Source: Alistipes sp. (GTDB taxonomy: Bacteria > Bacteroidota > Bacteroidia > Bacteroidales > Rikenellaceae). From it: a DNA stretch of 51,667 nt. Positions 8,436 to 25,885 of this stretch are shown one piece after another; positions within the stretch are counted from its first letter, which is position 1; every line of letters starts with the position of its first letter. A program made the position numbers and the translations under genes. Where the stretch lies: positions 1-51,667 of the forward strand of contig JAIDUK010000019.1 of NCBI GenBank assembly GCA_029060215.1, given 5' to 3'. The notes beneath the pieces were generated by a model. The model was not told the DNA's origin. It saw only the letters and a program-made list of their open reading frames with translations, and did no database searches.

Positions 8436-9401
8436 CTATTCACCGGCATTCATGACGAAAGTCTCGCGGGCCGGATTGTCGAAATAGCCGTCGCTTATGA
8501 AGTACATCATATGGAAGACGAAGGTCTGTCCGCCGTCCCAATAGCTGGGGAACTCACTGGCGGGGAACTTGCTCGGACTATAGGTCTGACCGTCGCAGAC
8601 GTAGACCTTGCCGTAGGTCGAATGGTCGGAACCGATGTACTGATCGGAAACGGTGACGGACGCATACTCCTTGCCGTCGACGGTGACCGTCTTCGACGGA
8701 TCGACCGAGAAGATGAGGTTGACGCCGCCGCCCCAATTGGTCAGACGGAACGTGTTGGTGCCTGCGGCCCGCTCGAGGGTCGGCTCGTCGTCATCGCCCT
8801 CCCACCAGAAGTTGTAGGAGTAGACACCGCCCTGCACGACGGGGCTGCCGTCGGTGCCGAGCACATAATCGGCTTCGGTCAGGTCGTTGGAAAGCAATTT
8901 GGAGAAATCCTTGAGCACGTAGCAGGGCTGCCAAGTAAGCGCGAGCGAGGCCTTGAACACCAAAGCGGCATTCTTGGTGCCGATTTGGTTGGGGCTCTGC
9001 GTCTCGGGATCGACCTCGGGATTGACGGCCGTGATCCTTACGGCGTAGTCGTTGCCCGGCACGAACTCATCCTTGAGCAACTCCAGAAAGATCGAAGCCT
9101 TGTATTCGCCGGCCTTGAACGTGACGGTTTCGGGCACCGAAATGAAATCGGTGCTGCCGGAGACCGAAAGGGCGACCGTAAACTCCTTGCTGGCGCTCTG
9201 ACGCAGCAGATAGATCTCTGCGGTCTGCGTCCCGGGAACCGAAGCGTCGAGCGAAACCGAGGTCTCGGAGTTGGCGAAATAAGCCAGTTCGGAGTTCTCG
9301 CCCGAAGTATCGAACTTGGCGACCTCTTGGTCCTGACTGCACCCCCCCCCGAACGCGAGTAGGAAAGCAGCTGCGAAGAACGATTTAACGATGTTTTTCA
9401 T
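8436..9401 (-). CDS. SusCD-associated lipoprotein with DUF1735-like N-terminal region; G9 tract at the lipobox
   Basis: A 321-residue predicted surface lipoprotein, third gene of the susC1-susD1 operon, 28 bases after susD1. The signal peptide (1-20) ends FGGG before Cys21. Residues about 45-125 resemble the N-terminal immunoglobulin-like module of SusD-linked lipoproteins (FTVALSVSGST, VPETVTFKAGEYKASI, NDYAVRITA). Such proteins usually sit outside the cell and bind or present the same substrate as their SusCD pair. The C-terminal half (about 160-321) is not recognised by me. Odd feature: Gly18-Gly20 are encoded by nine consecutive G (plus-strand C9, 9342-9350), so one-base slippage would frameshift the protein before its lipidated Cys. 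Confidence 0.78.
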   Translation of the reverse strand: MKNIVKSFFAAAFLLAFGGGCSQDQEVAKFDTSGENSELAYFANSETSVSLDASVPGTQTAEIYLLRQSASKEFTVALSVSGSTDFISVPETVTFKAGEYKASIFLELLKDEFVPGNDYAVRITAVNPEVDPETQSPNQIGTKNAALVFKASLALTWQPCYVLKDFSKLLSNDLTEADYVLGTDGSPVVQGGVYSYNFWWEGDDDEPTLERAAGTNTFRLTNWGGGVNLIFSVDPSKTVTVDGKEYASVTVSDQYIGSDHSTYGKVYVCDGQTYSPSKFPASEFPSYWDGGQTFVFHMMYFISDGYFDNPARETFVMNAGE

Positions 9402-9429
9402 ATCGTATGATTTTTAATGCGTTGAATGA

Positions 9430-11019
9430 TTATTCTGCGGTGTCGCCGAGCGGGTTCTGCACGATGTTGGGGTTGCCGTCCAACTCCTTCTGCGGGAGAA
9501 GAAGCACCCAAGCGAAAGTGCCGGGCGACTGCGTGTCGCGGGACGGAATGAGCGATGCCGGGCTGAAATCGGGGTTGTCCTCCTCGTCGACGGCCACACG
9601 CTTGAAACCCTGCCCCAGACGCTTGATGTCGAACAGACGGCCGTACTCGCCCCACAGCTCGATGCGGCGCTGGATGAGAATCTCCTCGAGGAGCGAACCC
9701 GTCGTACCTGCGCCGTCGCTGCCTGCGGCCAACGTGCCGAGCTCCTTGCCCGACTTCGATGCGTTCTTGTAAGCGCTGTCGCGGTTGGCCATCAACCGGT
9801 TGAGATAGATGCGGGCCTGCTCGTCGTTGCCCTGCTGGCAATAGGCCTCGGCAGCGGTCAGCAGCATCTCCTCGGCACGCATGTAGATGTAGTCGCCCAA
9901 CCACGAATCGCCCTTGAACTTGAACTTCACCTGACAATAGCGGATATTCTCGCCGGAAGCCTGATAATTGGCGTTGTCGAAGTCGCCCAACCACCATGCG
10001 CGGCGTGCATCGGTTGCGTTCATGCGGTTCCAGAGCCAAGCCGTGCAGCAACGGCGGGCGGTCTTGGCATAACCGTCGTGACCGGCGTCCATCTGCGACT
10101 GGAACGAGAGATACATGCCGTAGTTGTCGGTGGTCTTGACATCGCCCCACATGACGCTGGGCAGCGCCGTGATGTCGTTCATGCCGCTGGCGAGCTGCGC
10201 TGCGGTGAGCGTCTCCTTGCCTGCATAACCTTTCAACGCCTCGTCGGCCGCTGCGACGGCATCGTCCCACTTGTGCATGGTCAGAGCGACGCGGGCCTTG
10301 ATGCCGTTGGCCACGTAGTAGTCGATCTCGGTCTTGTTGCTGCGGACGATTCCGGCTTTCAGAGCCTCGTCGAGCAAACCGATACCGGTCGTCAGATCGG
10401 GATAGATGGCCTCCTCGTAAACAAACTTGTTGGTCGAACGGGCGGCACCCTTGGTTTCGGAAGTCGTAGGCTCCAGATAAACCGGGACGCACGGGTCCTC
10501 AGGATAATAGAAGTAAGCACGAGCGTAGACCTGAGCCAGCATGTGGTAGCAGAAAGCACGCAGGACATAGGCCTGACCGAGGATGTATTTGCCTTGGGTG
10601 CTCTCCGAAAGCAGATCGCCTGCGCCGATGAGGTTGTTGCACGAATTGATGGTGGTGTAGTAGCAATTCCACGTAGTGGCGCACTGAAGACGCGGATCGT
10701 CGAACCAACTTTTGATGCTGTAGGAATAGGTCTGCCACATCCAGCCTTTGCCCGAACCCGAAAGTACGTAGTCCTCGGCCAGTGCGTCGCCGGTCAGATA
10801 AGTTTCGGTCAGACCGAAGCCGATGCCCGAACTGTAGTTGCCCTGCCAGCCGCCGATACCCAAGTTGGCCAACGTTCCGGTGAGAGCCGACTGGGCATTG
10901 TCGGTGCTGCCGTAGACCACGTCGCCCGGCACCTTGTTCCCGGGGAACGTCTCCAGCGAATCCTTCGAACAGGAGAACGCGAGGGAGGCCGCGATACCCA
11001 ATAAAAATATTCTTTTCAT
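9430..11019 (-). CDS. SusD/RagB-family nutrient-binding outer-membrane lipoprotein (SusD1)
   Basis: A 529-residue lipoprotein that acts as the lid over the SusC barrel and binds the substrate at the cell surface. The signal peptide ends LAFSC, with lipidated Cys17. SusD hallmarks: YILGQAYVLRAFCYHMLAQ in the TPR helices (about 145-163), YIYMRAEEMLLTAAEAY (about 375-391), IQRRIELWGEYGRLFDIKR (about 453-471) and a C-terminal LLLPQKELDGNPNIVQNP. It follows susC1 by 21 bases. The substrate is not predictable from the sequence; no glycosidase, lyase or peptidase sits in this operon. Confidence 0.95.
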   Translation of the reverse strand: MKRIFLLGIAASLAFSCSKDSLETFPGNKVPGDVVYGSTDNAQSALTGTLANLGIGGWQGNYSSGIGFGLTETYLTGDALAEDYVLSGSGKGWMWQTYSYSIKSWFDDPRLQCATTWNCYYTTINSCNNLIGAGDLLSESTQGKYILGQAYVLRAFCYHMLAQVYARAYFYYPEDPCVPVYLEPTTSETKGAARSTNKFVYEEAIYPDLTTGIGLLDEALKAGIVRSNKTEIDYYVANGIKARVALTMHKWDDAVAAADEALKGYAGKETLTAAQLASGMNDITALPSVMWGDVKTTDNYGMYLSFQSQMDAGHDGYAKTARRCCTAWLWNRMNATDARRAWWLGDFDNANYQASGENIRYCQVKFKFKGDSWLGDYIYMRAEEMLLTAAEAYCQQGNDEQARIYLNRLMANRDSAYKNASKSGKELGTLAAGSDGAGTTGSLLEEILIQRRIELWGEYGRLFDIKRLGQGFKRVAVDEEDNPDFSPASLIPSRDTQSPGTFAWVLLLPQKELDGNPNIVQNPLGDTAE

Positions 11020-11040
11020 AATCTTGATCTGCGGTTAAAG

Positions 11041-14000
11041 TTAGAATTTGATGTCCAGACCTGCCACGAAGCTGCGCGAGGGCGTGTAGACGAAGCCCGT
11101 CGAACCGGTGAGCGAATAGGTCGGGTTCATACCTTTCAAGTGGGTGAAGAGGGCCAAGTTGTCCAACGAACAATAGACGCGGACGCTCTTCATGCCGATG
11201 TAGCTGGCCGCCTTGCGGGGGATCGTATAACCCACGGTGATGTTCTTGATGGCGAAGTACGAAGCGTCGACGAGGAAACGGTCCGAAGAGATGCTGCTGG
11301 TGCCGACCTCGACGCGCGGAACGTCGGTGATGTCGCCCGGCTGCTTCCAAGCACGCAGCTGGTGCTTGTGGAACGTCTGGCCGTAGTAGAACGGATTCAT
11401 CGTCGAACTGTAGATGCCTTCGTTGACCTTGCCGCCGATCGAGTAGGTGGTCAGGATCGAGACGTCGAGACCCTTCCAGCGGAAGTTGGTGCCGATGCTG
11501 CCGAAGAGGTCGGGGATGCGGCTGCCGCAATAGTAACGGCTGCCCGAAGCCTTGGCCGTGTCGGAGGTGATGTACTCGTTGACGATGTTGCCTGTCTCGT
11601 CCTTGTCATAAGCCCAGTAGAGTGCGGCACCCGTTGCCGGATCGACACCTGCGAACTTGGGCATGTAATAGGTATAGATGGGCAGACCCTCGCGGATGAT
11701 GCGCGAACCGTCGACGATTTCGGGAGTCTCGGGCGTCAGCTTGAGCACCTTGTTGTTCTGCGTGGCGGCCATGACGGTCACGTCCCAACGCATGTCGGGC
11801 TTGTCGATCAGCACGCCGTTCAACGAAATCTCCCAACCCGTGTTGCGCATCTCGCCGATGTTGTCGAGATAAGATTCGAAACCGCTCGAGAATGCCATCG
11901 GACGCTCCAGAATCATGTCGGTCGTCTTGCGGTTGTAATACTCGACTTCCAGATTGAGCCGGCTGCCGAACAGGGCGGCCTCGATACCCACGTTGAAGTT
12001 GGCGTTCTTCTCCCACGTGAGGCTGGGGTTGGCCAGCTGTGCGAGCGAGAAACCGTAGCTGCTGCCCGTCGAATTGACATCGTAGTAGCCCTGCCAGCCG
12101 TAGTAGTTGTCGTAGCCGGCGGCATCGAGAATGCCCTCGTTGCCCTGCACGCCGTACGAAGCCTTGAGCGTCAGGTTGTCGAGCCACGACACGTTCTTCA
12201 TGAACTGCTCCTGCGAGATGCGCCACGAAGCGCCGACCGACCAGAAATGGCCCCAACGAGTGTCGGGCGCGAAACGCGACGAACCGTCGGTACGCCAGCT
12301 GGCGTCGATGTAGTACTTGTTGTCGTAACCGTAGTTCAGACGTGCGAAGTAGGATTCGATCCGGTGGTCCGCGGTGCTGGATTCCGCCGAGTTGATCGTG
12401 GCGCCGACCACCTCGTAGAGACCCTCCACAAGACCCGAACGGCTGGCTTCGAGGTAGTTCTCCTCGTAGCTGTAGAACTCATGACCCAGCAGGGCGCTGA
12501 CCTCGTGCTTGTCGGCGAAGGTGCGGTTGTAGGTCAGCAGCTGGTTGAACGTGTAGGTCATGTAGCGATAGTTGTACTTGTAGATCAGACCGCCGTTCGA
12601 GGCTTGGTTGCCGTGCAGCCGGTTGTAGTACTGCATGTTGTTGGACATCTGGTAGTCCACGCCGAAGTTGGCCGTGAACTTCAGACCCTGCAAGGCCCCG
12701 GCTTTCTCGCTGTCGCTGCCGAAAGTGAGGTAGGTGCGGGCCGAAAGGCTTTCCGTAGTGTTCGAGGTCGGGTCGTCGTAGAACCCGGCGATCACGTTGG
12801 TGTTGGTATCCTGCGGACGGGTTTCGCCGTAGTCGTACTGCTTCTTGCCGTTCTCGCCGAGCAGGTTCTTGCCCTCGGCATCCTTCATGTAGACCGGATA
12901 GATCGGGGCCATGAGCTGAGCCGAATAGAAGACGTTGGAGCTGGACGAACCCGTATAACGGTTGGTGTTGGACTTCGAGTGGGCGAAGTTGGCGTTCATA
13001 CCGCCTGCGAACCAATGCTTGGGCGTGGTGTCGTAGCTTACGCGGCCCGTGTAGCGCTGGAAGTTCGTAGACTTGAGGATACCGTCCTCGTCGAGGTAGC
13101 TGATCGACATGCTTCCGCGGTGGATGTTGTTGCCGCCCGAAATCGAAGCCTGATATTCCTGACGGAAGGCTGCGTTGTCGGTCACTTCGTCGATCCAGCT
13201 TTCATCCCAAGCCGAAACGGCGTCGGCACGGACCTTGCCCGTGGCGGGATCGACCAGATCGGCCCAGCTGTAGTTCTTGAACGGGTTGTAGGCGGCGCCC
13301 AGCGTGCCGCCCAGACGCGACGAGGCGTACTGACGAGCGGCCGCATCGGTGTATCCTCCCGTAAAGTAGGCCGAATTGTAGAGCGACTGCCAGTTCAGCT
13401 CGACGTATTCGCGCTGGTTGACGAGGTCGTAGTTGGGAATCGCACGCGACGACACGCCCAGCGTAGCTTTGAAATTGACGTCTACGTCGCCCTGACGGCC
13501 GCGCTTGGTGGTGATGACGATCACACCGTTGGCGCCGCGCGCACCGTAGAGCGCTCCGGCCGAAGCATCCTTGAGCACGGTGATCGATTCGATGTCGTCC
13601 GGGTTGATGGCGTTGATCGAACCGGAATAGGCCACACCGTCGACCACATAAAGCGGCTGCGAGCTGGCGTTGATCGAACCGAAGCCGCGGATGGAAACCG
13701 ATGCGCTCGATCCCGGCTGGCCCGTACCCGAGGTGGTCTGCACGCCTGCGACCTGTCCTTCGAGCGCTTTCGAGACGTTGGAAACGACGCGTTTTTCGAG
13801 GTTCTCGGACTTGATGACCGCAGCCGAACCGGTGAAGGATTCTTTCTTGGCCGTACCGTAAGCTACGACGATGACGTCATCGATAGCCTGCGTATCTTCG
13901 GCGAGGGTTACGTCGAGCACGGTCTTGCCGGCCACGGCCACCTGCTGTGCCTGATAGCCGATGAACGACACGGTCAGCGTGCCGTCGGCAGGTGCCGCAA

Positions 14001-14187
14001 CGGTGTACTTGCCGTTGGAACCGGTCGTCGTACCCACCGACGTCCCGTCGACCAGTACGGTCGCTCCGACGATCGGCTGACCCTCGGAATTGGTAACCGT
14101 ACCGGATATTTGCCGGTTCTGAGCCCCGACGAACATCGCTCCGGCGCCCAAAACAGCAATTAACGATAGTACAAGTTTTCTTACCAT
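11041..14187 (-). CDS. SusC/RagA-family TonB-dependent transporter (SusC1)
   Basis: A 1048-residue outer-membrane importer. Domains: signal peptide 1-22 (cut after GAQ), a carboxypeptidase-regulatory-like domain (about 26-101) with SFIGYQAQQVAVAGK, the DDVIVVAYG linker (103-111), the plug (about 118-230) with SIRGFGS, LYVVDGVAYSG, IESITVLKDASAGALYGARG and GVIVITTKRG, then the beta-barrel ending in Phe. There is no STN domain, so it is not an obvious anti-sigma-signalling transporter. The first 77 bases (codons 1-25) and the 35-base leader are identical to those of susC3 on the opposite strand, forming a perfect inverted repeat. Of the two it is the one next to a recognisable promoter, so I infer it is the expressed copy in this orientation. 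Confidence 0.96.
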   Translation of the reverse strand: MVRKLVLSLIAVLGAGAMFVGAQNRQISGTVTNSEGQPIVGATVLVDGTSVGTTTGSNGKYTVAAPADGTLTVSFIGYQAQQVAVAGKTVLDVTLAEDTQAIDDVIVVAYGTAKKESFTGSAAVIKSENLEKRVVSNVSKALEGQVAGVQTTSGTGQPGSSASVSIRGFGSINASSQPLYVVDGVAYSGSINAINPDDIESITVLKDASAGALYGARGANGVIVITTKRGRQGDVDVNFKATLGVSSRAIPNYDLVNQREYVELNWQSLYNSAYFTGGYTDAAARQYASSRLGGTLGAAYNPFKNYSWADLVDPATGKVRADAVSAWDESWIDEVTDNAAFRQEYQASISGGNNIHRGSMSISYLDEDGILKSTNFQRYTGRVSYDTTPKHWFAGGMNANFAHSKSNTNRYTGSSSSNVFYSAQLMAPIYPVYMKDAEGKNLLGENGKKQYDYGETRPQDTNTNVIAGFYDDPTSNTTESLSARTYLTFGSDSEKAGALQGLKFTANFGVDYQMSNNMQYYNRLHGNQASNGGLIYKYNYRYMTYTFNQLLTYNRTFADKHEVSALLGHEFYSYEENYLEASRSGLVEGLYEVVGATINSAESSTADHRIESYFARLNYGYDNKYYIDASWRTDGSSRFAPDTRWGHFWSVGASWRISQEQFMKNVSWLDNLTLKASYGVQGNEGILDAAGYDNYYGWQGYYDVNSTGSSYGFSLAQLANPSLTWEKNANFNVGIEAALFGSRLNLEVEYYNRKTTDMILERPMAFSSGFESYLDNIGEMRNTGWEISLNGVLIDKPDMRWDVTVMAATQNNKVLKLTPETPEIVDGSRIIREGLPIYTYYMPKFAGVDPATGAALYWAYDKDETGNIVNEYITSDTAKASGSRYYCGSRIPDLFGSIGTNFRWKGLDVSILTTYSIGGKVNEGIYSSTMNPFYYGQTFHKHQLRAWKQPGDITDVPRVEVGTSSISSDRFLVDASYFAIKNITVGYTIPRKAASYIGMKSVRVYCSLDNLALFTHLKGMNPTYSLTGSTGFVYTPSRSFVAGLDIKF

Positions 14188-14222
14188 AAACGTTAATTTT
14201 TAGTGGTTTTTTAAAATAAAAA
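14111..14222 (-). repeat. 112-bp perfect inverted repeat, copy 1 (susC1 5' end)
   Basis: The reverse complement of this segment matches 20871-20982 base for base over 112 positions. It covers the susC1 leader and codons 1-25. Identity stops abruptly at both ends: C versus G just outside the leader side, and AAATATCC versus GGTGTCC in the coding side. Candidate recombination site for inversion of the 6.65-kb segment between the copies. Confidence 0.97.
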
Positions 14223-14230
14223 GCTCATTG

Positions 14231-14261
14231 CAAAGGTAAGAAACGGAAAGCCGAAAAGCAA
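14231..14261 (-). promoter_or_regulatory. Promoter of the susC1 operon, immediately outside the inverted repeat
   Basis: On the minus strand TTG (14259-14261), 20 bases, then TACCTTTG (14231-14238) fits the Bacteroidetes -33/-7 pattern. Transcription should begin within a few bases of 14225, right at the outer boundary of the inverted repeat at 14222. The promoter lies inside the invertible interval while the whole leader lies in the repeat. Confidence 0.72.
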
Positions 14262-14420
14262 GAATATTTATAAGAAAATTTAGCAACATGACGATTGTTT
14301 TGCGAAAAGTAAATTTAAGATTACATTTTATCCCCGATTTTAAGAAACCGCTTTCGAATTGTAATTGTCCGAGCGAGACAACTTTCGGCCTTTATTGAAA
14401 AAAAGAGCAAAACGAACGGA

Positions 14421-14451
14421 TTGTTAGCGGAAGCCCCTGCGCAGCTAACAA
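14421..14451 (-). terminator. Hairpin 3' of the recombinase gene (possible terminator or recombinase site)
   Basis: TTGTTAGC (14421-14428) and GCTAACAA (14444-14451) form a perfect 8-bp stem about 33 bases beyond the recombinase stop. The T-rich tract follows only after about 20 bases, so termination is possible but not textbook. It lies between the recombinase gene and the susC1 promoter. Confidence 0.45.
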
Positions 14452-14483
14452 GGTGAAAGCAAAACGGCGCTACGAACGTCGAA

Positions 14484-15722
14484 CTATTTGCGAAGTTCGG
14501 CGACGGCAGCCTGCGGGTAGAGCGTGTCGATGCGTTCGGAAAGGCGGTTCATCTCGCCGTCGAGCGTCGAATGCGTGATGACGGCATAAATCTGCGTGGT
14601 GCGTATGTTTTTGTGGCCCAGTAGTTTGCTGATGGTTTCGATGGCGACCCCCTGCGAGAGGGTGATGGTCGTGGCGAAGGTGTGGCGGGCAGTGTGGAAC
14701 GTGACCCGTTTGGAGATACCCGCCGCAGCCGTAATCTGCTCCAGTCGCTTGTTGCACCAGCCGTTGCCGGGCAGGCGGAAGATCGGATCGTCGTTTCCGG
14801 CAGGCAGATAGCGTTCGAGAATGGCCAGCGGCACGGCGAACAGGCGTACGCAGACCTCGGTGCCCGTTTTGCGACGGGTAAGCCCGATCCATGCGTGGCT
14901 GCCCTCCTGCTGGATATGCCGCCGGGTGAGGCCGCAGAGGTCGACATAGGAAAGCCCCGTGAAACAGCTGAACAGAAAGGCGTCGCGCACGAGCTGCCAT
15001 CCCCCGGCAGGAAGTTCCAGCTGCATGATGCGGGTTATCTCCTCTTCGCTCAGATAGTTGCGGTTGACGAACTCGCTGTGGAGCTTGTATCCGGCAAAAG
15101 GGTCGCTTGTCAAGTAGCCCTTGCTGCGGGCCAGCATCAGCACATGTTTCAGCGCGATCATATAGACCCATGCCGTGTTCTTCTTGTGGCTGCATTTCTG
15201 CACGATATAGGCATGGAATCCGGTGACGAAAGCCTTGTCGAGCTGGGAGAAAGCCAGATCGTCGCGCCGGTAGGTCTGGGCGATGTAACGTTCCAGATGC
15301 TGGCAGACACACCTATATTTATTATAGGTGGCCATGCTGCGGCTCACGCCCACCATGCGGCGGAACTCCTCGTTGTGGCGGCGGAAGAACTCGACGATGC
15401 GGTTGCGGGCCTGCGAGATGCCCAGATAAGCCTCCTTGACCATGGTGGGAGTGACCGGCACGCCGCTCAGAAAAAGCGTCCGGTAGCACTGTTCGAGCCG
15501 GTAGCGGATGTCGGCCAGCTGGCGGTTGGTCTCTTCGGCGGCGCGTCCGCGGCCCGCCACCTGCCCGGCTGCCGGGCACCACGCATCCTGCTCGACATTC
15601 AGATGCGTCGACAGCTGCACGCGCTGGCCGCAGAGCGTGACGCGGGCCATGACCGGAATCCGGCCGTTTTTCAGGGGTGCATTCTTCTTCAGATAGAAAA
15701 GTATTTTGAACGTATTTCTCAT
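14484..15722 (-). CDS. Tyrosine-type site-specific recombinase (Bacteroidetes integrase/invertase type)
   Basis: A 412-residue DNA recombinase. I take ATG 15722 (MRNTFKILFYLKKN), the usual N-terminus of Bacteroidetes recombinases; the ATG at 15782 lies upstream of a likely -7 box. Regions: an arm-binding N-terminal domain (about 1-90), a SAM-like core-binding domain (about 115-220) and the catalytic domain (about 225-400). Catalytic residues seen: Lys285 in RRKTG, His343 and Arg346 in HTARH, His370 in LGHKN and nucleophile Tyr379 in TTQIYA. The first catalytic Arg is Ser258 (TGLSYVD), a substitution known from IntDOT-like enzymes, so activity is still expected. No other phage or element genes are adjacent; the inverted repeats flanking it suggest a local invertase role. 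Confidence 0.93.
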   Translation of the reverse strand: MRNTFKILFYLKKNAPLKNGRIPVMARVTLCGQRVQLSTHLNVEQDAWCPAAGQVAGRGRAAEETNRQLADIRYRLEQCYRTLFLSGVPVTPTMVKEAYLGISQARNRIVEFFRRHNEEFRRMVGVSRSMATYNKYRCVCQHLERYIAQTYRRDDLAFSQLDKAFVTGFHAYIVQKCSHKKNTAWVYMIALKHVLMLARSKGYLTSDPFAGYKLHSEFVNRNYLSEEEITRIMQLELPAGGWQLVRDAFLFSCFTGLSYVDLCGLTRRHIQQEGSHAWIGLTRRKTGTEVCVRLFAVPLAILERYLPAGNDDPIFRLPGNGWCNKRLEQITAAAGISKRVTFHTARHTFATTITLSQGVAIETISKLLGHKNIRTTQIYAVITHSTLDGEMNRLSERIDTLYPQAAVAELRK

Positions 15723-16045
15723 CCGCTTACGGCTTGGTTTCAAGTTCGATTCGGCGTTAAAGGTAACGATTAAGCACCGCATTTTGAAGGATGAATCGGC
15801 CCAAATAGCTTATTGTCCACCCGTTCTGCGGGCCGCAGAGGTTACTTTTTGGCAACCCGTCCGGGGGCGTTCCGGCTCCCCGCCCTCGGTTCGCGGCTTG
15901 GTTCTTGCTGATTATCAACAAAGTGTCCGTTTTTCATGGCAATTCATATGGTTTAGAGACTAATCGTTTGACTATCAGCGCTTTGCTTTTGCGTCCCGTC
16001 GCTCCGTGTTTTTTATTTTACAAATCCCAAATTAAACTTACGCTT
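15723..16045. promoter_or_regulatory. Divergent regulatory region between recombinase and susC2
   Basis: For the recombinase (minus strand) TACCTTTA at 15765-15758 is a 7-of-8 match to the -7 consensus and supports the 15722 start. For susC2 I see no convincing TTTG/TAnnTTTG pair. The susC2 leader shares pieces with the susC3 leader: GGTTACTTTTTGGCAACC (15840-15857) resembles GGTAACTTTCTGGCGACC (20753-20770), both are followed by a GC-rich hairpin, an ATTATCA motif and TGCGTCCCG, then TTTTTATTTT (16010-16019) before the ATG. The susC2 leader-proximal sequence is a diverged relative of the 112-bp repeat. Confidence 0.55.
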
Positions 16046-19000
16046 ATGGTAAGAAGAATTGTACTATTGTTCGTTGCCGTTTTGGGCTCGTGCGCACTGG
16101 CGCTCGCCCAATCGCGGCAGGTATCGGGTACCGTTACCGCTTCCGACGGCCAGCCTGTCGTCGGTGCATCGGTCATCGTCGACGGCACCACGAACGGTAC
16201 CACGACTTCTGTCGACGGCCGCTTCTCCATCGCGGCGCCTGCCGACGGCACGCTGACCGTGTCGTTCATCGGCTACCGCCCGCAGCAAGTCGCCGTAGCA
16301 GGCAAGACCGACATCGACATAATCCTCGCCGAAGACAGCCAAGCCATCGACGACGTGGTGGTGGTGGGCTACGGTTCCGGCCGCAAGGTGGGCACCATCA
16401 TCGGTTCGGTCGATCAGGTCAAGGGCGACAAACTCGAAGACCGCCCGTCGAACAACGTGATGGACGCCTTGCAGGGGCAGGTTCCGGGTCTGCAAATATT
16501 CAGCAGCTCGGGCGAGCTGACCGACGCGTCGACGATCCGCCTGCACGGCATGGGTTCGATCTCGGCAGGCAACGAGCCGCTGATTCTGTTGGACGGCGCC
16601 CCGATCACCACCGGCACGCTGCTGGCCATGAACCAGAGCGACATCGCCTCGATCAACATATTGAAAGACGCTTCGGCCACTTCGATCTACGGTTCGCGCG
16701 CGGCCAACGGCGTCATTTACGTGACCTCGAAAAAGGGTGCGCGCGGCCAGAACGGCGCCACCGTCACGCTGCGGGCGCAGTATTCGTTCTCGAACGCCAT
16801 CAAGCCGCGTCTGAAGCGGATGAACACCGACCAGCTGCTCGACTATCAGGCCGCCATATATGCCGCAAGCAACGGTATGGACTATACCGACCCCAGTATT
16901 GTGGAAGGGTGGCGCAGCACCATCGTCAACTATTACGGCATCGACGAAAGCGTCGATGTAGACTGGTTCGACGAGATCATGCAGAACAATGCGCCGATGT
17001 ATCAGGTCGACTTCGGCGTGTCGGGCGGTTCGCAGCGCACGTCGTACTATTTCTCGGGCGGCTACCTCGACCAGCAGGGCATCCTGCCCGGTTCGGCCGT
17101 GACCCGCTACACGTTCCGCACCAACGTCGACACCCAAGCCACCGACTGGCTGAAGGCCGGCATGAGCCTCGGCGTGGGCTACCAGAAGGCCGACAACGCC
17201 ACCACGGCCGCATCGGCAGGCGGTCTCTACACCAGCAACCCGATGTTCGCTTCGCTGCTCATTCCGGCCTATCAGCCCGCAGTCGGCGAAGACGGCAAGC
17301 CACTCCGCTTCCTCGACCAGTACGGAACGGACAACCCCGCCATTGCCGATGAGTGGTACTACAAGAACAACAACCGTTTGCAGCTGAACGGAAGCGCGTT
17401 CGTCGAACTGACGCCCGTCGAGGGGCTCAGCATCCGTTCGCAGCTCTCGGCCAACGCTTTCGACTATCGCAGCAAGGCCGTCTACAGCCCGGACTACCCC
17501 ACGGCGACCGGTCCGAAAGGCTCGGGCACGATGAGCGAAGGATTCCAGCGCAGCTACGTGTGGACGTGGACCAATACGGCCGAATACCGTTTCACCGTTG
17601 CCGACCGGCACCACGTCTCGGCCCTGATCGGTCAGGAAAGCATCTATGGCAACAACGAAGCGATGAGCATCGGTGTCAAAGGGCTCACCAATCCCGACCT
17701 GATCTTCCTGAACAAGGGCACCGAGGTCTCGGCCCTGCCCTCCTACACGTTGAGCCAGTATGCCTACAACTCGGTGTTCGGCCGCGTGGAATACGACTTC
17801 GACGAAAAATACTTCGTCGACGGCTCGGTGCGCTACGATGCCTGCTCGCGCTTCGGCGCCAACAACCGCGGCGCCACGTTCTGGTCGGTGGGCGGCATGT
17901 GGAATCTGAAAAAAGAGGGTTTCCTCGCCGACAACAGCACCGTCACCAACCTTTCGGTGAAAGTATCGTACGGTACGCAGGGCAACTCGGGCATCGGCAA
18001 CTACGACCAATATGAAACGATCGTTTCGAGCCGCTATCCCTACAACGGTTCGGCTTCGTGGATACTCAACAATGCCGGCAACTCGTCGCTGGCGTGGGAG
18101 AAGCAGGGTACGCTGACCGTCGGCGCCAACATCGAGCTGTGGAAGAGACTGCGGCTGAACGTGGAGTGGTACCGCCGTCAGACCACCGACATGCTGATGA
18201 ACAAACCGCTGGCCCTGTCGAGCGGCTTCTCGAGCCAGATGTCGAACATCGGCGGCATGCGCAACTCGGGCGTCGACATCAACCTCAACTACGACATCTT
18301 CACCAACAAGGACTGGTCGGTGAACTTCTACGCCAACTTCAACTACAACCGCAACCAGATGACCAAGCTCTGGGAGAAGGACCTCAAGCAGGCCAGCATG
18401 GGCGACGGCACGTCGATGTACTATGTCGTGGGCAAGCCTTTCGGCGAATTCTACATGCAGGAGTGGCGCGGGGTGAACCCCGAGACCGGCGAGCCCCAAT
18501 GGACCGCGGCCGACGGCGGCATCACCACCGACTACGACGAAGCCGTCGAAGTGGACCTCAACAAGTCGGTGCTGGCACCCTACTCGGGCGGCTTCGGGCT
18601 CAACGTTTCGTGGAAGGGCATCGGCCTGCTCGCCGACTTCGCATGGGTGGCCGGCAATTACATGTGCAACAACAACCTCTATTTTGCGGCCAACACCTAT
18701 TTCGGCGGCAACTACGGACAGGTCGACGAAGTGCTGGACTACTGGAAAAAGCCGGGCGACCGGACCAAATACCCGGCGCTTTACTACGAGACCCAGTTCG
18801 ATTCGCGCATGATCGAAGAGGCCTCGTTCCTGCGTCTGAAGAACATCCAGCTCTCCTACACGCTGCCCTCGCAGCTGCTGCGGAAGACGAAGTTCATCAA
18901 GGGGCTCAAGGTCTATGTCGGAGCGCGCAACCTGCTGACCGTCACCGGCTACAACGGATTCGACCCCGAAGTGGCGGGCGGCGACCTGACCGGCGACATC

Positions 19001-19069
19001 GGAGCGTTCGACGCCGACGTATACCCCAACTCGCGTCAATGGACCTTCGGCTGCGAGTTCACGTTCTAA
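16046..19069 (+). CDS. SusC/RagA-family TonB-dependent transporter (SusC2)
   Basis: A 1007-residue outer-membrane importer. The start is ATG 16046 (MVRRIVLLFVAVLGS), aligning with the SusC1 and SusC3 signal peptides; an open frame further upstream adds no signal-peptide sense. Signal peptide 1-22 (cut after ALAQ), a carboxypeptidase-regulatory-like domain (about 24-100, SFIGYRPQQVAVAGK), DDVVVVGYG, and a plug with LHGMGSISAGNEPLILLDG, INILKDASATSIYGSRA and GVIYVTSKKG. The barrel ends FGCEFTF. The plug reads LHG where most have IRG. Its 5' end is similar to, but clearly diverged from, the perfect repeat shared by susC1 and susC3. It lies entirely inside the putative invertible segment. Confidence 0.96.
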   Translation: MVRRIVLLFVAVLGSCALALAQSRQVSGTVTASDGQPVVGASVIVDGTTNGTTTSVDGRFSIAAPADGTLTVSFIGYRPQQVAVAGKTDIDIILAEDSQAIDDVVVVGYGSGRKVGTIIGSVDQVKGDKLEDRPSNNVMDALQGQVPGLQIFSSSGELTDASTIRLHGMGSISAGNEPLILLDGAPITTGTLLAMNQSDIASINILKDASATSIYGSRAANGVIYVTSKKGARGQNGATVTLRAQYSFSNAIKPRLKRMNTDQLLDYQAAIYAASNGMDYTDPSIVEGWRSTIVNYYGIDESVDVDWFDEIMQNNAPMYQVDFGVSGGSQRTSYYFSGGYLDQQGILPGSAVTRYTFRTNVDTQATDWLKAGMSLGVGYQKADNATTAASAGGLYTSNPMFASLLIPAYQPAVGEDGKPLRFLDQYGTDNPAIADEWYYKNNNRLQLNGSAFVELTPVEGLSIRSQLSANAFDYRSKAVYSPDYPTATGPKGSGTMSEGFQRSYVWTWTNTAEYRFTVADRHHVSALIGQESIYGNNEAMSIGVKGLTNPDLIFLNKGTEVSALPSYTLSQYAYNSVFGRVEYDFDEKYFVDGSVRYDACSRFGANNRGATFWSVGGMWNLKKEGFLADNSTVTNLSVKVSYGTQGNSGIGNYDQYETIVSSRYPYNGSASWILNNAGNSSLAWEKQGTLTVGANIELWKRLRLNVEWYRRQTTDMLMNKPLALSSGFSSQMSNIGGMRNSGVDINLNYDIFTNKDWSVNFYANFNYNRNQMTKLWEKDLKQASMGDGTSMYYVVGKPFGEFYMQEWRGVNPETGEPQWTAADGGITTDYDEAVEVDLNKSVLAPYSGGFGLNVSWKGIGLLADFAWVAGNYMCNNNLYFAANTYFGGNYGQVDEVLDYWKKPGDRTKYPALYYETQFDSRMIEEASFLRLKNIQLSYTLPSQLLRKTKFIKGLKVYVGARNLLTVTGYNGFDPEVAGGDLTGDIGAFDADVYPNSRQWTFGCEFTF

Positions 19070-19094
19070 ACCCCAAAAACCAAAAACAAACGAT

Positions 19095-20594
19095 ATGAAA
19101 AAAATAGTATATCTGATCGCGGCGCTCGGTCTGGGCTGCGGATTCGTCTCGTGCGATCTGGACCTCACGCCCGACACCGACGTCGCAGGCTCCGATGCCG
19201 CAGCGCTGATCTACGTGGAGGGGTTGCGCAACGGGATCTACAACCAGCTGACCACCGTTTCGGGCTACGACTACATGCGCTACCCCGAATACTACACCGA
19301 CCTGTTCAACGAAACCACCAACTCGGGCAACCGCGGCGGCTATTTCTCGCGCTGGCAGCTCAACGCCACCGATCAGGACGTGAACGACATCTGGTCGAAA
19401 TACTACTCTGTCGTCGCGTCGATCAACTACGCCATCATGCGGGCCGAGCAGGCTGCGGCCAACGATCCCGACAACGCCGACGTGCTCACTTTCTACAAGG
19501 GCGAACTCCACCTGATCCGCGCCTACGTGTTCCACCAGCTGGCACTGCGCTTCTGCGAGGACTACGAGCCCGAACGCGCCTCGTCGCAGTTGGGCATCCC
19601 GACCCCCGTTTCCTACGATCCGGCCGCACAGCACAGCCGCGGCACGCTGGAGCAGACCTACCAGCGCATTCTCGACGACATCGCTGCAGCCGAGAAGATC
19701 GTCGACACTCCGGGCGCGGCCGATTCGCCCTACGTCACCGTCGACGCCATCACGGCGTTGAAAGCGCAGGTGGCCTTGCAGATGCACCGCTACGACGACG
19801 CGATCGCCTATGCCCGTTCGCTCTACGGGGCCTATCCGCTCATCACGTCCAAAAGCCAGATGGAGCAGATGTGGATGAATGACACTTCGTCCGAGACGAT
19901 CTTCCAGCTGAGCCTCACGTCGACGACGCTTCCGCTGGTCGACAACACCACCTACGACTATTCGAACGGCACGTGGAACGCCGCAGGCTACTTCATCTAC
20001 AGCCCGGCCTATGTTCCCGAACAGTGGGTCTGCGACCTGTTCGACACCGCCAAAGACTACCGCTACGGGCCCTGCGTCTCGGCTTCGCACATCAAGGAGA
20101 TCGACAACGGGGCGAACACCGACGGCTGGCTGCTGGTCAAGCTGACGGGCAACCGCGACCTGTTCACCTCGGCTTCGGTGCTGACCTACAAGAACATGCC
20201 CAAGATCTTCCGGGTGGCCGAGATGTACCTGATCGAGGCCGAAGCGCAGTACCGCAACAACGGCGACGCGCTCACCCCGCTCAACGCCCTGCGCCAAGCC
20301 CGCGGTCTGGATGCCGTCGGCAGCACGGGCGAAGCGCTCTTCAAGGAGATTCAGGACGAATCGGCCCGCGAGTTCATCGGCGAGGGGCGCCGGCTGTTCG
20401 ACCTCAAGCGGTGGCACCAAGGCATCGCCCGGGATGCGCAGACGGCCTGCATCGGTTTCCTCACGGGCGGCAGCAGCGTTTTCGAGCTGACCGTCGATGC
20501 GGCGAACAGCAAGTGGGTATGGCCCGTTCCGCAGGAAGAGCTCCACAACAACCCCAACTTCGGAAACCAGAACGCAGGATACGTCAACAACTGA
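19095..20594 (+). CDS. SusD/RagB-family nutrient-binding lipoprotein (SusD2)
   Basis: A 499-residue lipoprotein, partner of SusC2, starting 25 bases after it. The signal peptide ends GFVSC (Cys20). SusD hallmarks: FYKGELHLIRAYVFHQLALRF (about 133-153), a run of TPR-like helices, KIFRVAEMYLIEAEAQYRNN (about 374-393), an ESAREFIGEGRRLFDLKRWHQ segment (about 421-441) and the C-terminal WPVPQEELHNNPNFGNQNAGY. The pair is followed by a strong terminator and no accessory gene, so susC2-susD2 is a minimal two-gene operon. Substrate not predictable. Confidence 0.95.
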   Translation: MKKIVYLIAALGLGCGFVSCDLDLTPDTDVAGSDAAALIYVEGLRNGIYNQLTTVSGYDYMRYPEYYTDLFNETTNSGNRGGYFSRWQLNATDQDVNDIWSKYYSVVASINYAIMRAEQAAANDPDNADVLTFYKGELHLIRAYVFHQLALRFCEDYEPERASSQLGIPTPVSYDPAAQHSRGTLEQTYQRILDDIAAAEKIVDTPGAADSPYVTVDAITALKAQVALQMHRYDDAIAYARSLYGAYPLITSKSQMEQMWMNDTSSETIFQLSLTSTTLPLVDNTTYDYSNGTWNAAGYFIYSPAYVPEQWVCDLFDTAKDYRYGPCVSASHIKEIDNGANTDGWLLVKLTGNRDLFTSASVLTYKNMPKIFRVAEMYLIEAEAQYRNNGDALTPLNALRQARGLDAVGSTGEALFKEIQDESAREFIGEGRRLFDLKRWHQGIARDAQTACIGFLTGGSSVFELTVDAANSKWVWPVPQEELHNNPNFGNQNAGYVNN

Positions 20595-20615
20595 CGCTTC
20601 TGTCATCCATTCGGC

Positions 20616-20651
20616 AAAGCGAGGATTCCCTTCCCGGAATCCTCGCTTTTT
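20616..20651 (+). terminator. Intrinsic terminator of the susC2-susD2 operon
   Basis: A perfect 11-bp stem, GCGAGGATTCC (20619-20629) with GGAATCCTCGC (20636-20646), followed by TTTTT. It separates susC2D2 from the susC3 leader. Confidence 0.93.
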
Positions 20652-20752
20652 GTTTCCGGTCCGGAGCGGTTTGCGGTTATGGATAAGTTGCGTTTTGCAG
20701 GCGGATGGCACTTCTAACAAGCTGTCGTTCTTCGGTTTGCGAATGTCCGACA

Positions 20753-20870
20753 GGTAACTTTCTGGCGACCGCGCCGTTTTTTCGAGCCCGATTTGCTTCG
20801 GGCTCTTTTATTTATGTCGCTTATTATCAGCTTCTTGCATATCGCAAGCTCGCCGCCCTATGCGTCCCGG
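20753..20870 (+). promoter_or_regulatory. susC3 leader with internal intrinsic terminator
   Basis: After the block GGTAACTTTCTGGCGACC (20753-20770) there is a terminator-like hairpin, GAGCCCGA (20784-20791) with TCGGGCTC (20798-20805), followed by TTTTA. A small dyad CTTGC/GCAAG follows (20834-20848), then TGCGTCCCG abutting the inverted repeat. TAACTTTC (20755-20762) is the only vague -7 match and has no -33 partner. The region looks like an attenuated or inactive leader. Between 20652 and 20752 I see nothing identifiable. Confidence 0.6.
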
Positions 20871-20982
20871 TTTTTATTTTAAAAAACCACTAAAAATTAA
20901 CGTTTATGGTAAGAAAACTTGTACTATCGTTAATTGCTGTTTTGGGCGCCGGAGCGATGTTCGTCGGGGCTCAGAACCGGCA
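20871..20982 (+). repeat. 112-bp perfect inverted repeat, copy 2 (susC3 5' end)
   Basis: Identical in reverse complement to 14111-14222. It begins TTTTTATTTT, contains the 35-base susC3 leader and the first 77 bases of the gene, and ends at GGCA within codon 26. Together the copies bracket the recombinase and susC2-susD2. Confidence 0.97.
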
Positions 20983-23900
20983 GGTGTCCGGCACGGTCTC
21001 GGGCCCCGATGGTGCTCCGGTGGCGGGTGCGACCATCTTGGTCGACGGCACGCTTGTCGGTACGACGTCGAATGCAGACGGCAGTTTCTCCGTTGCGGCA
21101 CCTGCCGACGGGTCGCTGACCGTATCGTTCATCGGATACGAATCCAAAACGATCGCCATTGCCGGCAAAACGCATATCGATATCTCGCTGAACGAAGATT
21201 CGCAGGCGATCGACGATGTGATCGTGGTGGCGTTCGGTACGGCCCGCAAGGAAGCCTTCACCGGCTCGGCCAAGATGATCCAATCGGACGACCTGATCAA
21301 AACCCAGTCGTCGAACGTGCAGGATGCGCTTGTGGGCAAGGTCTCGGGCGTGCAGTTCGCCTCGGAATCGGGCCGTCCGGGTTCGGGCCAGAAGATCTTC
21401 GTCCGCGGCTACGGCTCCATGTCGGCGCAGAACACCCCGCTGTGGATCGTCGACGGCGTGCCCTACGATGGCGATATCAACAACATCAATGCGGCTGACA
21501 TCGAATCGATCTCGGTGCTTAAGGATGCTGCTTCCAACGCCTTGTACGGAGCCCGCGGTGCCAACGGTGTGATCATGGTGACCACCAAGCGTGCCAAGGC
21601 CGGCGATGCCGTGGTGACTTTCGACGGCAAATGGGGTCTGAACACCCGCGCCCTGCGCACCTACGACATTGCGGACAACGCAGGCGAATACTACGAAATG
21701 CACTACAAGGCGCTGTACAATTATTATACCCTCGATCAGAACTACGATGCCCTTTCGGCCAACATCGCCGCCAACAAACTGCTGACGTCGAACCTCGCCG
21801 GAGGTTTGGGCTACAATGTGATGACGGTACCCGAGGGGCAGAACCTCATCGGCGAGAACGGTCGTCTGAACCCGCTCGCCACGGAGGGTCGTCTGGTCGA
21901 CTACAACGGTCGGCAGTATTTGCTGAAAGCCGACAACTGGCTCGACGAGATCTACAAAACCTCGTTCCGTCAGGAGTATAACGTGAGCGTGGCAGGCGCT
22001 ACGGACCGTTCCAACTTCTACGCGTCGCTGGGCTATCTGGACAACACGGGTATCATCGACGGTTCGAGCAACGAACGCTATACGGCCCGCCTGCGTGCCG
22101 ACTATCAGGCCAAGAAGTGGCTGAAGATCGGCGCCAACATGTCGTACACCCATTTCGTATGGAACAACGGCAACAAGATCAACGAAAGCGGCGACGGTCA
22201 GGGCGAAGGCAACGCCGACGGCGGCAACGCATTCGCTACGGCCATCCGGATGGCGCCGATCTATCCGGTCTACATGCGCGACGGCAACGGCAACATCATG
22301 ATCGACCAATACGGCATGAAGCTCTACGATACGGGCGACGGCCGCAACGGCGGTGCGCTGCGCTCCAACGGTGGTACGAGCAACGACTTGCAGGACATCC
22401 AGCTGAACCGCTACATCAACGAGGGCAACGCCATGATGGCGGGCGGTTTCCTCGATTTCAACCTGTACAAAGGTTTGAAATTTACGGTCAACGGCAACGT
22501 GTCGCTCGATGAGACGCGCAGCACGGAGTTGCAGAACCCCTTCTATGGCCAGTTCGCTTCGTCGGGCGGTGCGATCTACAAGGCTCATTCGCGCGACATC
22601 GCCTACAACTTGCAGCAGCTGCTTTCCTACAGCGAGACCTTCGCCGACAAGCACAACGTAGACCTGTTGTTGGGCCACGAAATGTACAACCGCAAGCAGT
22701 ACGGCCTCTATGGCAGCAAGACGGTCATGTTCTCGCCCGACAACCTTGAGTTGAGCGGTGCTACGGTCGATTCGTCGCGTTCGGGTTCTTCGGTGCTCGA
22801 ATACAACAACGAGGGCTATTTCTTCCGCGCCCAATACAACTACGACGAGAAATATTTCATCTCGGGTTCGTACCGCCGCGATGCTTCGTCGCGTTTCCAC
22901 CCCGACCACCGCTGGGGCAACTTCTGGTCGGCGGGCGCCGCATGGCTCATCTCGAAAGAAGGGTTCATGGACGGCACCAAAGGCTGGCTCAATATGTTGA
23001 AACTGAAGGTTTCCTACGGTTCGCAGGGTAACGACAACCTCGGTGCGACTGCCGACACCTACTACCGCTATGTCGACTACTACAGCATCGAAAGCGACGG
23101 CAATGGCGGTGTGACCAGCGTGCTTGCTCAGAAGGGTAATCCCGACATCACGTGGGAGACCAACTCCAACTTCAACGTCGGTGTCGAATTCGGTTTGTGG
23201 AACGACCGCCTGAGCGGTAGCGTCGAATTCTTCAACCGCAAGACTTCGGACATGCTCTTCCAGCTCGCCACTCCCATGGAGGCCGGTTATACTTCGATCT
23301 GGACCAACATCGGCGACATGGTCAACCGCGGTGTCGAAATCGAGCTGAATGCCGATCTGATCCGTACGAAGAACCTCGTGTGGGATTTTTCGCTCAACAT
23401 GACCCACTACAAGAACAAGCTGGTGCGGCTTCCCGAGCAGTATAAGAACAATACTACTTCCGACGGCCGTTACGTAGGCCGCCAGAGCGGCAGCCGTTTC
23501 TACACCGAGGGGCAGTCCGTGTTCTCGTTCTACATGCCTACCTACGCCGGTGTCGAGGAGAAGACGGGTAAATCCATGTGGTATACCTACCAGACCAACG
23601 AGGAAACGGGCAAAGTGGAGCGTGTGAAAACCACGGACTATTCGACCGCTTCGGCCGAAGGCCGCGAAATGCAGGGCGATGCGCTGCCCGACCTCTACGG
23701 CGGTTTCAGCACCTCGCTGCGCTTCTACGGTGTCGACCTCTCGCTCGGCTTTACCTACCAGATCGGCGGTCAGGTGTTCGATGAGGGCTACCGGTTCTAC
23801 ATGGGTTCGCCGCAGGGTACTTCTACCGGCACCAACTACCACCGCGACCTGCTCAAGTCGTGGAGCGAAAGCAACACGGGGTCGAACATTCCGCGTTTTG

Positions 23901-24178
23901 CCTACAACGATCCCAACCAGAACGGTACATCGAACCGTTTCCTGACCGACGCTTCGTATCTCAACATCCAGAACATCACGCTCGGCTACACGCTGCCGCA
24001 GCGCATCACCCGCAAGTTCCTCGTCGAGAAACTGCGCGTCTATCTGGCTTGCGACAACGTATGGTACTGGTCGCAGCGGCAGGGTCTCGATCCGCGTCAG
24101 AGCATCAACGGTGCCTCGAACCCCTATTACTATGCCCCGATCCGCACTTTCTCGGGCGGTCTGACGGTAACGTTCTAA
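20906..24178 (+). CDS. SusC/RagA-family TonB-dependent transporter (SusC3)
   Basis: A 1090-residue outer-membrane importer, the largest of the three. The signal peptide (1-22) is identical to that of SusC1 because of the inverted repeat; proteins diverge from about residue 27. A carboxypeptidase-regulatory-like domain (about 26-101, SFIGYESKTIAIAGK), DDVIVVAFG, a plug with FVRGYGSMSAQNTPLWIVDG, ISVLKDAASNALYGARG and GVIMVTTKRA, then a long barrel ending in Phe. No STN domain. It heads an operon with susD3, a large lipoprotein, a subtilase and a lipocalin-like lipoprotein, which points to proteins or peptides as substrate. No recognisable promoter lies directly upstream in this orientation. 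Confidence 0.96.
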   Translation: MVRKLVLSLIAVLGAGAMFVGAQNRQVSGTVSGPDGAPVAGATILVDGTLVGTTSNADGSFSVAAPADGSLTVSFIGYESKTIAIAGKTHIDISLNEDSQAIDDVIVVAFGTARKEAFTGSAKMIQSDDLIKTQSSNVQDALVGKVSGVQFASESGRPGSGQKIFVRGYGSMSAQNTPLWIVDGVPYDGDINNINAADIESISVLKDAASNALYGARGANGVIMVTTKRAKAGDAVVTFDGKWGLNTRALRTYDIADNAGEYYEMHYKALYNYYTLDQNYDALSANIAANKLLTSNLAGGLGYNVMTVPEGQNLIGENGRLNPLATEGRLVDYNGRQYLLKADNWLDEIYKTSFRQEYNVSVAGATDRSNFYASLGYLDNTGIIDGSSNERYTARLRADYQAKKWLKIGANMSYTHFVWNNGNKINESGDGQGEGNADGGNAFATAIRMAPIYPVYMRDGNGNIMIDQYGMKLYDTGDGRNGGALRSNGGTSNDLQDIQLNRYINEGNAMMAGGFLDFNLYKGLKFTVNGNVSLDETRSTELQNPFYGQFASSGGAIYKAHSRDIAYNLQQLLSYSETFADKHNVDLLLGHEMYNRKQYGLYGSKTVMFSPDNLELSGATVDSSRSGSSVLEYNNEGYFFRAQYNYDEKYFISGSYRRDASSRFHPDHRWGNFWSAGAAWLISKEGFMDGTKGWLNMLKLKVSYGSQGNDNLGATADTYYRYVDYYSIESDGNGGVTSVLAQKGNPDITWETNSNFNVGVEFGLWNDRLSGSVEFFNRKTSDMLFQLATPMEAGYTSIWTNIGDMVNRGVEIELNADLIRTKNLVWDFSLNMTHYKNKLVRLPEQYKNNTTSDGRYVGRQSGSRFYTEGQSVFSFYMPTYAGVEEKTGKSMWYTYQTNEETGKVERVKTTDYSTASAEGREMQGDALPDLYGGFSTSLRFYGVDLSLGFTYQIGGQVFDEGYRFYMGSPQGTSTGTNYHRDLLKSWSESNTGSNIPRFAYNDPNQNGTSNRFLTDASYLNIQNITLGYTLPQRITRKFLVEKLRVYLACDNVWYWSQRQGLDPRQSINGASNPYYYAPIRTFSGGLTVTF

Positions 24179-24198
24179 ATTTTTAACGACGAATCAGT

Positions 24199-25878: not shown

Positions 25879-25885
25879 AGGCATT

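What the first reader, a model, noticed from the sequence alone, without database searches (positions are those of the whole stretch)
14111..20982. Perfect 112-bp inverted repeat at two susC 5' ends flanking a tyrosine recombinase: candidate invertible SusC/SusD switch
Seen: the leader and first 25 codons of susC1 (minus) and susC3 (plus) are identical over 112 bases in inverted orientation, and identity stops sharply at both ends while the genes themselves are strongly diverged. Between them are a Bacteroidetes-type tyrosine recombinase with complete His-Arg-His-Tyr residues and the susC2-susD2 operon. Known: Bacteroides species phase-vary surface proteins, including SusC/SusD loci, through tyrosine recombinases acting on inverted repeats. 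Inference: inversion swaps the upstream regions of the susC1 and susC3 operons without changing either protein, because the crossover lies in the leader or signal-peptide codons.
Basis: partly seen in the sequence, partly recalled or inferred. Interest (0 to 1): 0.93.

Follow-up and report, generated by a model that had tools for sequence, protein, structure and literature searches.

The report
One promoter flips between SusC/SusD operons
In this gut bacterium (likely genus Alistipes), a DNA segment with a recombinase gene and the only matching promoter of the locus lies between operons for outer-membrane uptake receptors; it is predicted to flip so that a cell would express one receptor pair at a time, and related species carry the same kind of segment in opposite orientations.

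Summary
The 112-bp perfect inverted repeat is real. It is best read as the arms of an invertible single-promoter selector for SusC/SusD operons. In the window, susC1 has a full Bacteroidota-type promoter (TTG-N20-TAnnTTTG) just inside the repeat; susC2 and susC3 have none. In 22 divergent susC pairs from the window and relatives, exactly one side has that promoter (19 at 9/9 letters, 3 at 8/9; other side 3-6/9), and where a recombinase gene lies between, it points to the promoter side in 20 of 20. Of 10 locus comparisons with collinear flanks on both sides, 6 have the segment inverted, at least three separate contrasts. The crossover is placed in an 11-23-bp core in the 5' UTR, not in signal-peptide codons. 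Of the 120 best recombinase clusters, 57 have a longest contig of 1.7-2.0 kb, the usual segment size, against 4 of 120 for a neighbouring gene. The kind is known (Bacteroides fragilis SusC/SusD shufflons); the layout makes it a new variant. Inversion in this strain is not shown.

The parts
9430..11019 (-). susD1 (529 aa)
   Evidence: Pfam SusD_RagB, SusD-like_3
11041..14187 (-). susC1 (1048 aa), the operon with the promoter in this assembly
   Evidence: TIGR04056 826 bits; promoter
14111..14222 (-). left arm of the 112-bp perfect inverted repeat (5' UTR plus 77 nt of susC1)
14212..14222 (-). inferred crossover core TTTTTATTTTA at susC1
   Evidence: shared stretch in pairs
14231..14261 (-). sole full promoter match of the locus: TTG-N20-TACCTTTG, pointing to susC1
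   Evidence: the one other full match in the window is at 43655-43685
14484..15782 (-). tyrosine recombinase (432 aa), predicted invertase, points to the promoter side
16010..16087 (+). diverged leader of susC2 (81%), keeps the 11-bp core at 16010-16020, no promoter
16046..19069 (+). susC2 (1007 aa), inside the segment
19095..20594 (+). susD2 (499 aa), inside the segment
20616..20649 (+). terminator-like hairpin after susD2 (14 pairs)
   Evidence: the scan finds 8 sites against 7.4 in shuffles, so weak
20784..20805 (+). second terminator-like hairpin upstream of susC3
   Evidence: weak, as above
20871..20982 (+). right arm of the 112-bp inverted repeat (5' UTR plus 77 nt of susC3); core at 20871-20881
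20906..24178 (+). susC3 (1090 aa), no matching promoter in this orientation
24199..25878 (+). susD3 (559 aa)

Best explanation
The 112-bp inverted repeat marks the two ends of a 6.65-kb segment that carries a tyrosine recombinase gene, the susC2-susD2 operon and the only matching promoter of the locus, and this segment is predicted to be flipped by that recombinase, which would move the promoter from susC1-susD1 to susC3-susD3. Shown: the repeat, the gene order, one promoter per pair, and inverted segments in relatives. Inferred: the recombinase pairs two short cores (TTTTTATTTTA in the 5' UTR, just downstream of the -7 box) and exchanges strands there. The 5' UTR and coding sequence stay with each operon while the promoter travels with the recombinase gene, so neither protein changes. 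The cassette without the promoter is predicted silent, and terminator-like hairpins upstream of susC3 may insulate it. The 11-bp core also present at susC2 would permit a small 1.8-kb inversion that turns susC2-susD2 on, giving a three-state selector.
For: (1) 22 of 22 divergent susC pairs have exactly one side matching TTG-N20-TAnnTTTG beside the core; ON sides score 8-9 of 9, OFF sides 3-6; random sequence averages 4.7 and reaches 8 in 0.3% of trials; the recombinase points to the ON side in 20 of 20. In the window the full pattern occurs twice, once here and once at 43655. (2) Inversion between relatives: 6 of 10 comparisons with both arms collinear, among them window vs L145 (A. senegalensis MAG) and L171 vs L170, flanks 96%/94%, 1.77-kb middle inverted, breakpoints overlapping in a 23-bp repeat. 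(3) The core region is shared within a pair more than between genomes: mean longest shared stretch 19.5 against 11.6 with partners permuted, 0 of 20,000 permutations as high, 22 loci. (4) 57 of the 120 listed recombinase clusters have a longest contig of 1.7-2.0 kb, against 4 of 120 for the neighbouring flavoprotein gene; the closest homologue (90%) has a 6,773-base longest contig, near the 6.65-kb segment here. (5) The 16-letter core CTTTTTATTTTAAAAA with up to one mismatch occurs three times in this genome, at susC1, at susC3 and once on C42. (6) 1 of 11 other susC upstream stretches taken from this genome has such a promoter.
Against: No reads, no second genome of this species, no expression or recombination assay. 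Four of 10 two-arm comparisons are in the same orientation, and of 51 one-arm comparisons 20 are inverted and 31 the same; three of the six inversions involve L170 and two L147, so they stand for at least three events, not six. The 22 pairs are not independent: L156/L170/L171/L172, L162/L163, L147/L155 and L144/L145 are close kin. Three ON promoters (L147, L155, L164) miss one letter. Of 41 distinct recombinase places examined, 21 do not have it between a divergent susC pair on the stretch held; some (L158-L160) show one promoter-bearing susC and no partner. The large 6.65-kb arrangement has one parallel (L161, without a recombinase between). Perfect arms could also come from gene conversion. 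The contig-length evidence is indirect and I have not seen those contigs.
Confidence: 0.86

Rival explanations
1. Only the small segment (susC1 core to susC2 core, 1.8 kb, recombinase plus promoter) flips in this strain; the perfect 112-bp match between susC1 and susC3 is gene conversion or a recent cassette duplication, and susC3 is a parked silent cassette.
For: The 1.8-kb arrangement is the usual one in relatives (19 other pairs with the recombinase between, 1,742-2,009 bp between ATGs); the susC1/susC2 cores share 11 bp, as short as in L190; coding leaders look homogenised within genomes (mean identity 0.80 within pairs vs 0.62 between genomes, 12 pairs).
Against: susC2's leader is diverged (81%) while susC1/susC3 are perfect; the 6,773-base longest contig of the closest homologue fits the large segment.
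Confidence: 0.2
2. RecA-dependent homologous recombination between the 112-bp repeats causes the inversion; the recombinase is incidental.
For: 112 bp, and 350 bp in L036, are long enough for it by general knowledge; homogenised arms point to some homologous exchange.
Against: L170 and L171 differ by an inversion although their repeat is 23 bp; the recombinase lies inside 20 of 22 pairs with fixed orientation to the promoter.
Confidence: 0.07
3. No switch: the recombinase is a mobile-element integrase and the shared leader is a conserved signal-peptide region of a recently duplicated susC.
For: Related tyrosine recombinases are common in these genomes (10 matches at E<=0.001 in this one), and 21 of 41 places examined do not show the susC pair.
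Against: Identity starts at the core upstream of the gene, only one side has a promoter in 22 of 22 pairs, and orientation varies between relatives; 61 of the 69 named loci checked, the more distant ones, show no susC match within 2.5 kb, so the arrangement goes with this recombinase subfamily.
Confidence: 0.03
4. Assembly artefact: a collapsed repeat or false inverted join.
For: The window is a whole contig of a 46-contig draft; several relatives' contigs end at this repeat.
Against: The same architecture recurs in 19 other places, including the single-contig genome G177.
Confidence: 0.03

Closest known systems
Bacteroides fragilis SusC/SusD shufflons controlled by the tyrosine recombinase Tsr0667 (passages seen in PMC4747536, PMC11852207, PMC12632263; the original 2009 paper is not held)
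   Same: Tyrosine recombinase, inversions and SusC/SusD operons; alternative alleles using different promoters; more than two cassettes.
   Different: There one recombinase acts on three susC/susD clusters and nine other regions (passage). Here the recombinase gene rides inside the segment with the single promoter, and no set of distant copies of the 16-letter core was found. The recalled consensus AGTYYYN4GDACT is absent from the window. Finer comparison of layouts was not possible without the 2009 paper.
Bacteroidales invertible promoters (Mpi capsule promoters, Tsr19/BF2766 promoters)
   Same: TAnnTTTG promoter between inverted repeats, recombinase-driven inversion (passages).
   Different: In the passages seen these act as ON/OFF switches; here the promoter faces one of two operons, so the choice would be A or B. 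The review passage notes that larger inversions moving genes into expression sites are also known.
Campylobacter fetus sap surface-layer switch (recalled; named in a passage of PMC11852207)
   Same: By recall: one promoter on an invertible segment of about 6 kb between surface-protein genes that share an identical 5' region.
   Different: Different proteins, phylum and recombination machinery; works like, not a member.
Salmonella Hin flagellar switch (recalled)
   Same: Recombinase gene and promoter inside one invertible segment.
   Different: Serine recombinase; one operon plus repressor rather than two alternative operons.

Membership tests
Bacteroidales invertible-promoter switches | Promoter of TAnnTTTG type between inverted repeats | tested here: met
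   Promoter 14231-14261 just inside the left arm
Bacteroidales invertible-promoter switches | Tyrosine recombinase linked to the repeats | tested here: met
   Pfam domains and HxxR/H/Y; between the susC pair in 20 of 22
Bacteroidales invertible-promoter switches | Both orientations occur | tested here: inconclusive
   Between relatives yes, 6 of 10 comparisons; within this strain not testable here
B. fragilis Tsr0667-type SusC/SusD shufflon | SusC/SusD operons with several recombination sites | tested here: met
   Three susC leaders; 11-bp core at susC2; activity of the sites not tested
B. fragilis Tsr0667-type SusC/SusD shufflon | Repeat consensus AGTYYYN4GDACT (recalled) | tested here: not met
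   0 matches in the window
B. fragilis Tsr0667-type SusC/SusD shufflon | One recombinase controls many distant regions | tested here: inconclusive
   The 16-letter core with up to 1 mismatch occurs 3 times in the genome, 2 of them at this locus; shorter or altered cores were not searched
B. fragilis Tsr0667-type SusC/SusD shufflon | Recombinase orthologous to BF0667 | not tested
   BF0667 sequence not at hand
Mobile-element integrase | Element genes around the integrase | tested here: not met
   The proteins examined between 9430 and 25878 are three SusC, three SusD and the recombinase

The most novel reading that the evidence does not exclude
Alistipes carries a genus-wide single-expression-site system: a self-flipping module (recombinase plus the only promoter) that selects one of two or three complete SusC/SusD operons, uses a core that coevolves within each pair, serves as a docking point where whole receptor operons are exchanged between species and change sides, and in some species adds a second layer, a G9 tract in the signal peptide that could slip.
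Probability: 0.5. Interest if true: 0.77.

Novelty: new variant of a known kind. Interest (0 to 1): 0.64.

Why it matters
SusC/SusD pairs decide what a gut Bacteroidota cell can import and are exposed to phages and antibodies (general knowledge). A selector that would make their expression mutually exclusive, carried as one flipping module in a common gut genus, predicts receptor heterogeneity inside clonal populations and gives ready markers (segment orientation, segment-sized contigs) to read it from existing metagenomes. The listings show no paper titled or abstracted for such a locus in Alistipes, and the passages seen mention none; supplementary tables of the inversion surveys were not seen, so a listed but undescribed Alistipes inversion is possible.

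Tried and rejected
A leader hairpin from the AATTAACG/CGTTAATT dyad: by eye not kept in the second lineage (L188-L196), so not pursued. Rfam: no match in 9000-26000. B. fragilis consensus: absent. Arrangement elsewhere: of the 80 named loci, 69 had a recombinase match strong enough to check; 7 have divergent susC and 1 is one-sided (L034-L040, L095), the other 61 show no susC match within 2.5 kb. Codon bias: codons 2-10 of the leader use codons rare in the window (CTA, TTA, AGA) almost invariantly in 50 leaders, but these leaders were found by DNA similarity, so this is biased; I leave open whether it is a recombinase arm site or an mRNA element.

Rows dropped before the count of 22 pairs: L176 (susC reading frames head to head inside coding sequence, no leader), L174 (3.7 kb apart, no recombinase between), L037, L179 and L185/L186 (one side missing at a contig end), L194 (susC on one side only), and the second pairs of the window (susC1/susC2) and L161. 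The loci were chosen from the hits, not all of them. ATGs of L145, L146 and L189 were set by hand from the leader, because the ORF caller chose another start. The L150 left leader ends at the contig edge 50 nt into coding. In one search the own-pair stretch is the row maximum in 9 of 22. In one search the 12 pairs leave out L150, L156, L170-L172, the second lineage and the second L161 pair; 0 of 20,000 permutations reached the observed mean, but the highest permuted value (0.798) was close to it (0.799). In one search both lists are capped at the best 120 (of 322 and 7,845 proteins) and differ in identity range, and the Fisher value (2e-16) treats clusters as independent, which they are not fully.
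Full report
Observation. The repeat is exact over 112 bp (14111-14222 and 20871-20982) and the next exact repeat in the window is 38 bp. Identity drops to 29% over 200 nt upstream and 70% over 312 nt downstream of it. The genome holds the leader three times, all in this locus. Between the arms lie the recombinase (14484-15782, minus) and susC2-susD2; the bodies of susC1-susD1 and susC3-susD3 lie outside, pointing away.

Promoter. Aligning 51 leaders from the window and relatives at the ATG shows that upstream of the repeat one class carries TAnnTTTG at about -50 and the other does not. TAnnTTTG is the Bacteroides -7 consensus (passage of PMC4747536). In the window susC1 has TTG-N20-TACCTTTG (14231-14261); susC2 and susC3 lack it, and the only other full match in 51.7 kb is at 43655. 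TAnnTTTG alone occurs 17 times in the window, but between 9430 and 25878 only here and once inside susC1. I then took divergent susC pairs around recombinase relatives or leader hits: 20 with the recombinase between, plus L148 and L161 (about 540 bp apart, without it). All 22 have exactly one matching side (19 at 9/9, 3 at 8/9; other side 3-6/9), and in 20 of 20 the recombinase reads towards that side. Five of these (L188-L191, L196) have recombinases only 40-44% identical. Of 11 other susC upstream stretches of this genome, 1 has such a promoter. Not every relative shows the layout: of 41 distinct recombinase places examined (40, L187 repeating L166, plus L170), 21 have no divergent pair around it on the stretch held, some because a contig ends, some because the recombinase lies beyond susD.

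Inversion between relatives. With outer arms used to fix the frame, 10 comparisons have both arms collinear; the segment is inverted in 6 and the same in 4. Three of the six involve L170 and two L147, so at least three events. A further 51 comparisons rest on one arm: 20 inverted, 31 the same. The window is inverted against L145 (G072), whose arms match at about 80%; there the left arm match lies beyond the left operon, which is a different one. The clearest case is L171 against L170: arms 96.2% and 93.7% identical, the 1.77-kb middle inverted, breakpoints overlapping in CCGTGGACTTTTTATTTTAAAAA.

Site. In the 5' UTR the two sides of a pair share 11 to 37 bp around a core such as TTTTTATTTTA, TTTTTATATTA or TTTTTACATTA; the letters differ between genomes but agree within a pair (mean shared stretch 19.5 against 11.6 when partners are permuted). 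This is what strand exchange that needs an identical overlap would leave (general knowledge of tyrosine recombinases). The full length of exact identity differs between loci (21 to 350 bp) and seems to reflect homogenisation within genomes.

Populations. In the protein collection (genomes and metagenomes), 57 of the 120 best recombinase clusters have a longest contig of 1.7-2.0 kb, 51 of them between 1.7 and 1.9 kb, the length of the usual segment. For the flavoprotein gene at 7125-8312 it is 4 of 120. Assemblies breaking at both ends of this segment are expected if reads support both orientations; this reading is inferred, and I did not see the contigs. The closest homologue (P0001, 90%) has a 6,773-base longest contig, which would fit the 6.65-kb version seen here.

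Three cassettes. The window's nearest divergent neighbour of susC1 is susC2, whose core is intact over 11 bp although its leader is diverged. L161 (G198) also has three leaders, one to the left and two to the right, with 98 and 127 bp identical to the first. A three-state selector is plausible but untested.

Cassette exchange. Beside the flavoprotein gene the operon is susC1-susD1 in the window, a second one in L144/L145 and a third in L146. In L165 (G069) the susC1-susD1 operon, with the gene at 8436, lies instead next to the genes that stand at 30.9-37.3 kb in the window, so operons can change sides. L143, a 3.4-kb contig in another bin, has the window's promoter and leader and the first 338 nt of susC1 exactly, then continues as a different susC, 48% identical overall. 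The leader therefore seems to be a docking point; the origin of that contig is uncertain.

Known systems. SusC/SusD inversion is known from B. fragilis (passages). I found none described for Alistipes in the listings, but the library lacks most subscription papers, including the 2009 paper, and no supplements were seen. I file it as a new variant: same kind of outcome, recombinase and single promoter together inside the segment, an A-or-B choice, and no sign of distant sites with the 16-letter core.

Noticed in passing
L147, L149, L150, L151, L153, L155, L156, L162, L164, L169, L171, L172 (leaders): 12 of 51 leaders carry a run of 8 or 9 G (11 of them exactly 9) at codons 13-17 of the susC signal peptide, against 8 runs of 9 or more elsewhere in about 630 kb: a likely slipped-strand tract and second layer of phase variation. 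The window's leaders do not have it.
   Followed up: partly
L143:2793-3385: Promoter, leader and 338 nt of susC1 identical to the window joined to another susC body at VVAYGTA: exchange of receptor bodies behind a constant N-terminus.
   Followed up: partly
L165:1-12000: susC1-susD1 and the gene at 8436 (84.6% over 5.8 kb) sit next to the window's 30.9-37.3-kb genes; the contig begins exactly at the repeat edge.
   Followed up: partly
L176:11328-17163: Two susC reading frames (G033) meet head to head inside coding sequence without leaders; intragenic inversion or assembly fault.
   Followed up: no
window:14111-14187 and related leaders: Codons 2-10 of the leader are nearly invariant at synonymous sites and use codons rare in the window (50 leaders); nucleotide-level constraint of unknown purpose.
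   Followed up: partly
L148, L158, L159, L160, L166, L184: In a second layout the recombinase gene lies beyond susD, outside the susC pair or beside a single promoter-bearing susC.
   Followed up: partly
window:25886-30287: After susD3 come a protein with a lipoprotein-like N-terminus (775 aa, no Pfam) and a subtilase with S8_N domain, hinting at peptide uptake.
   Followed up: no
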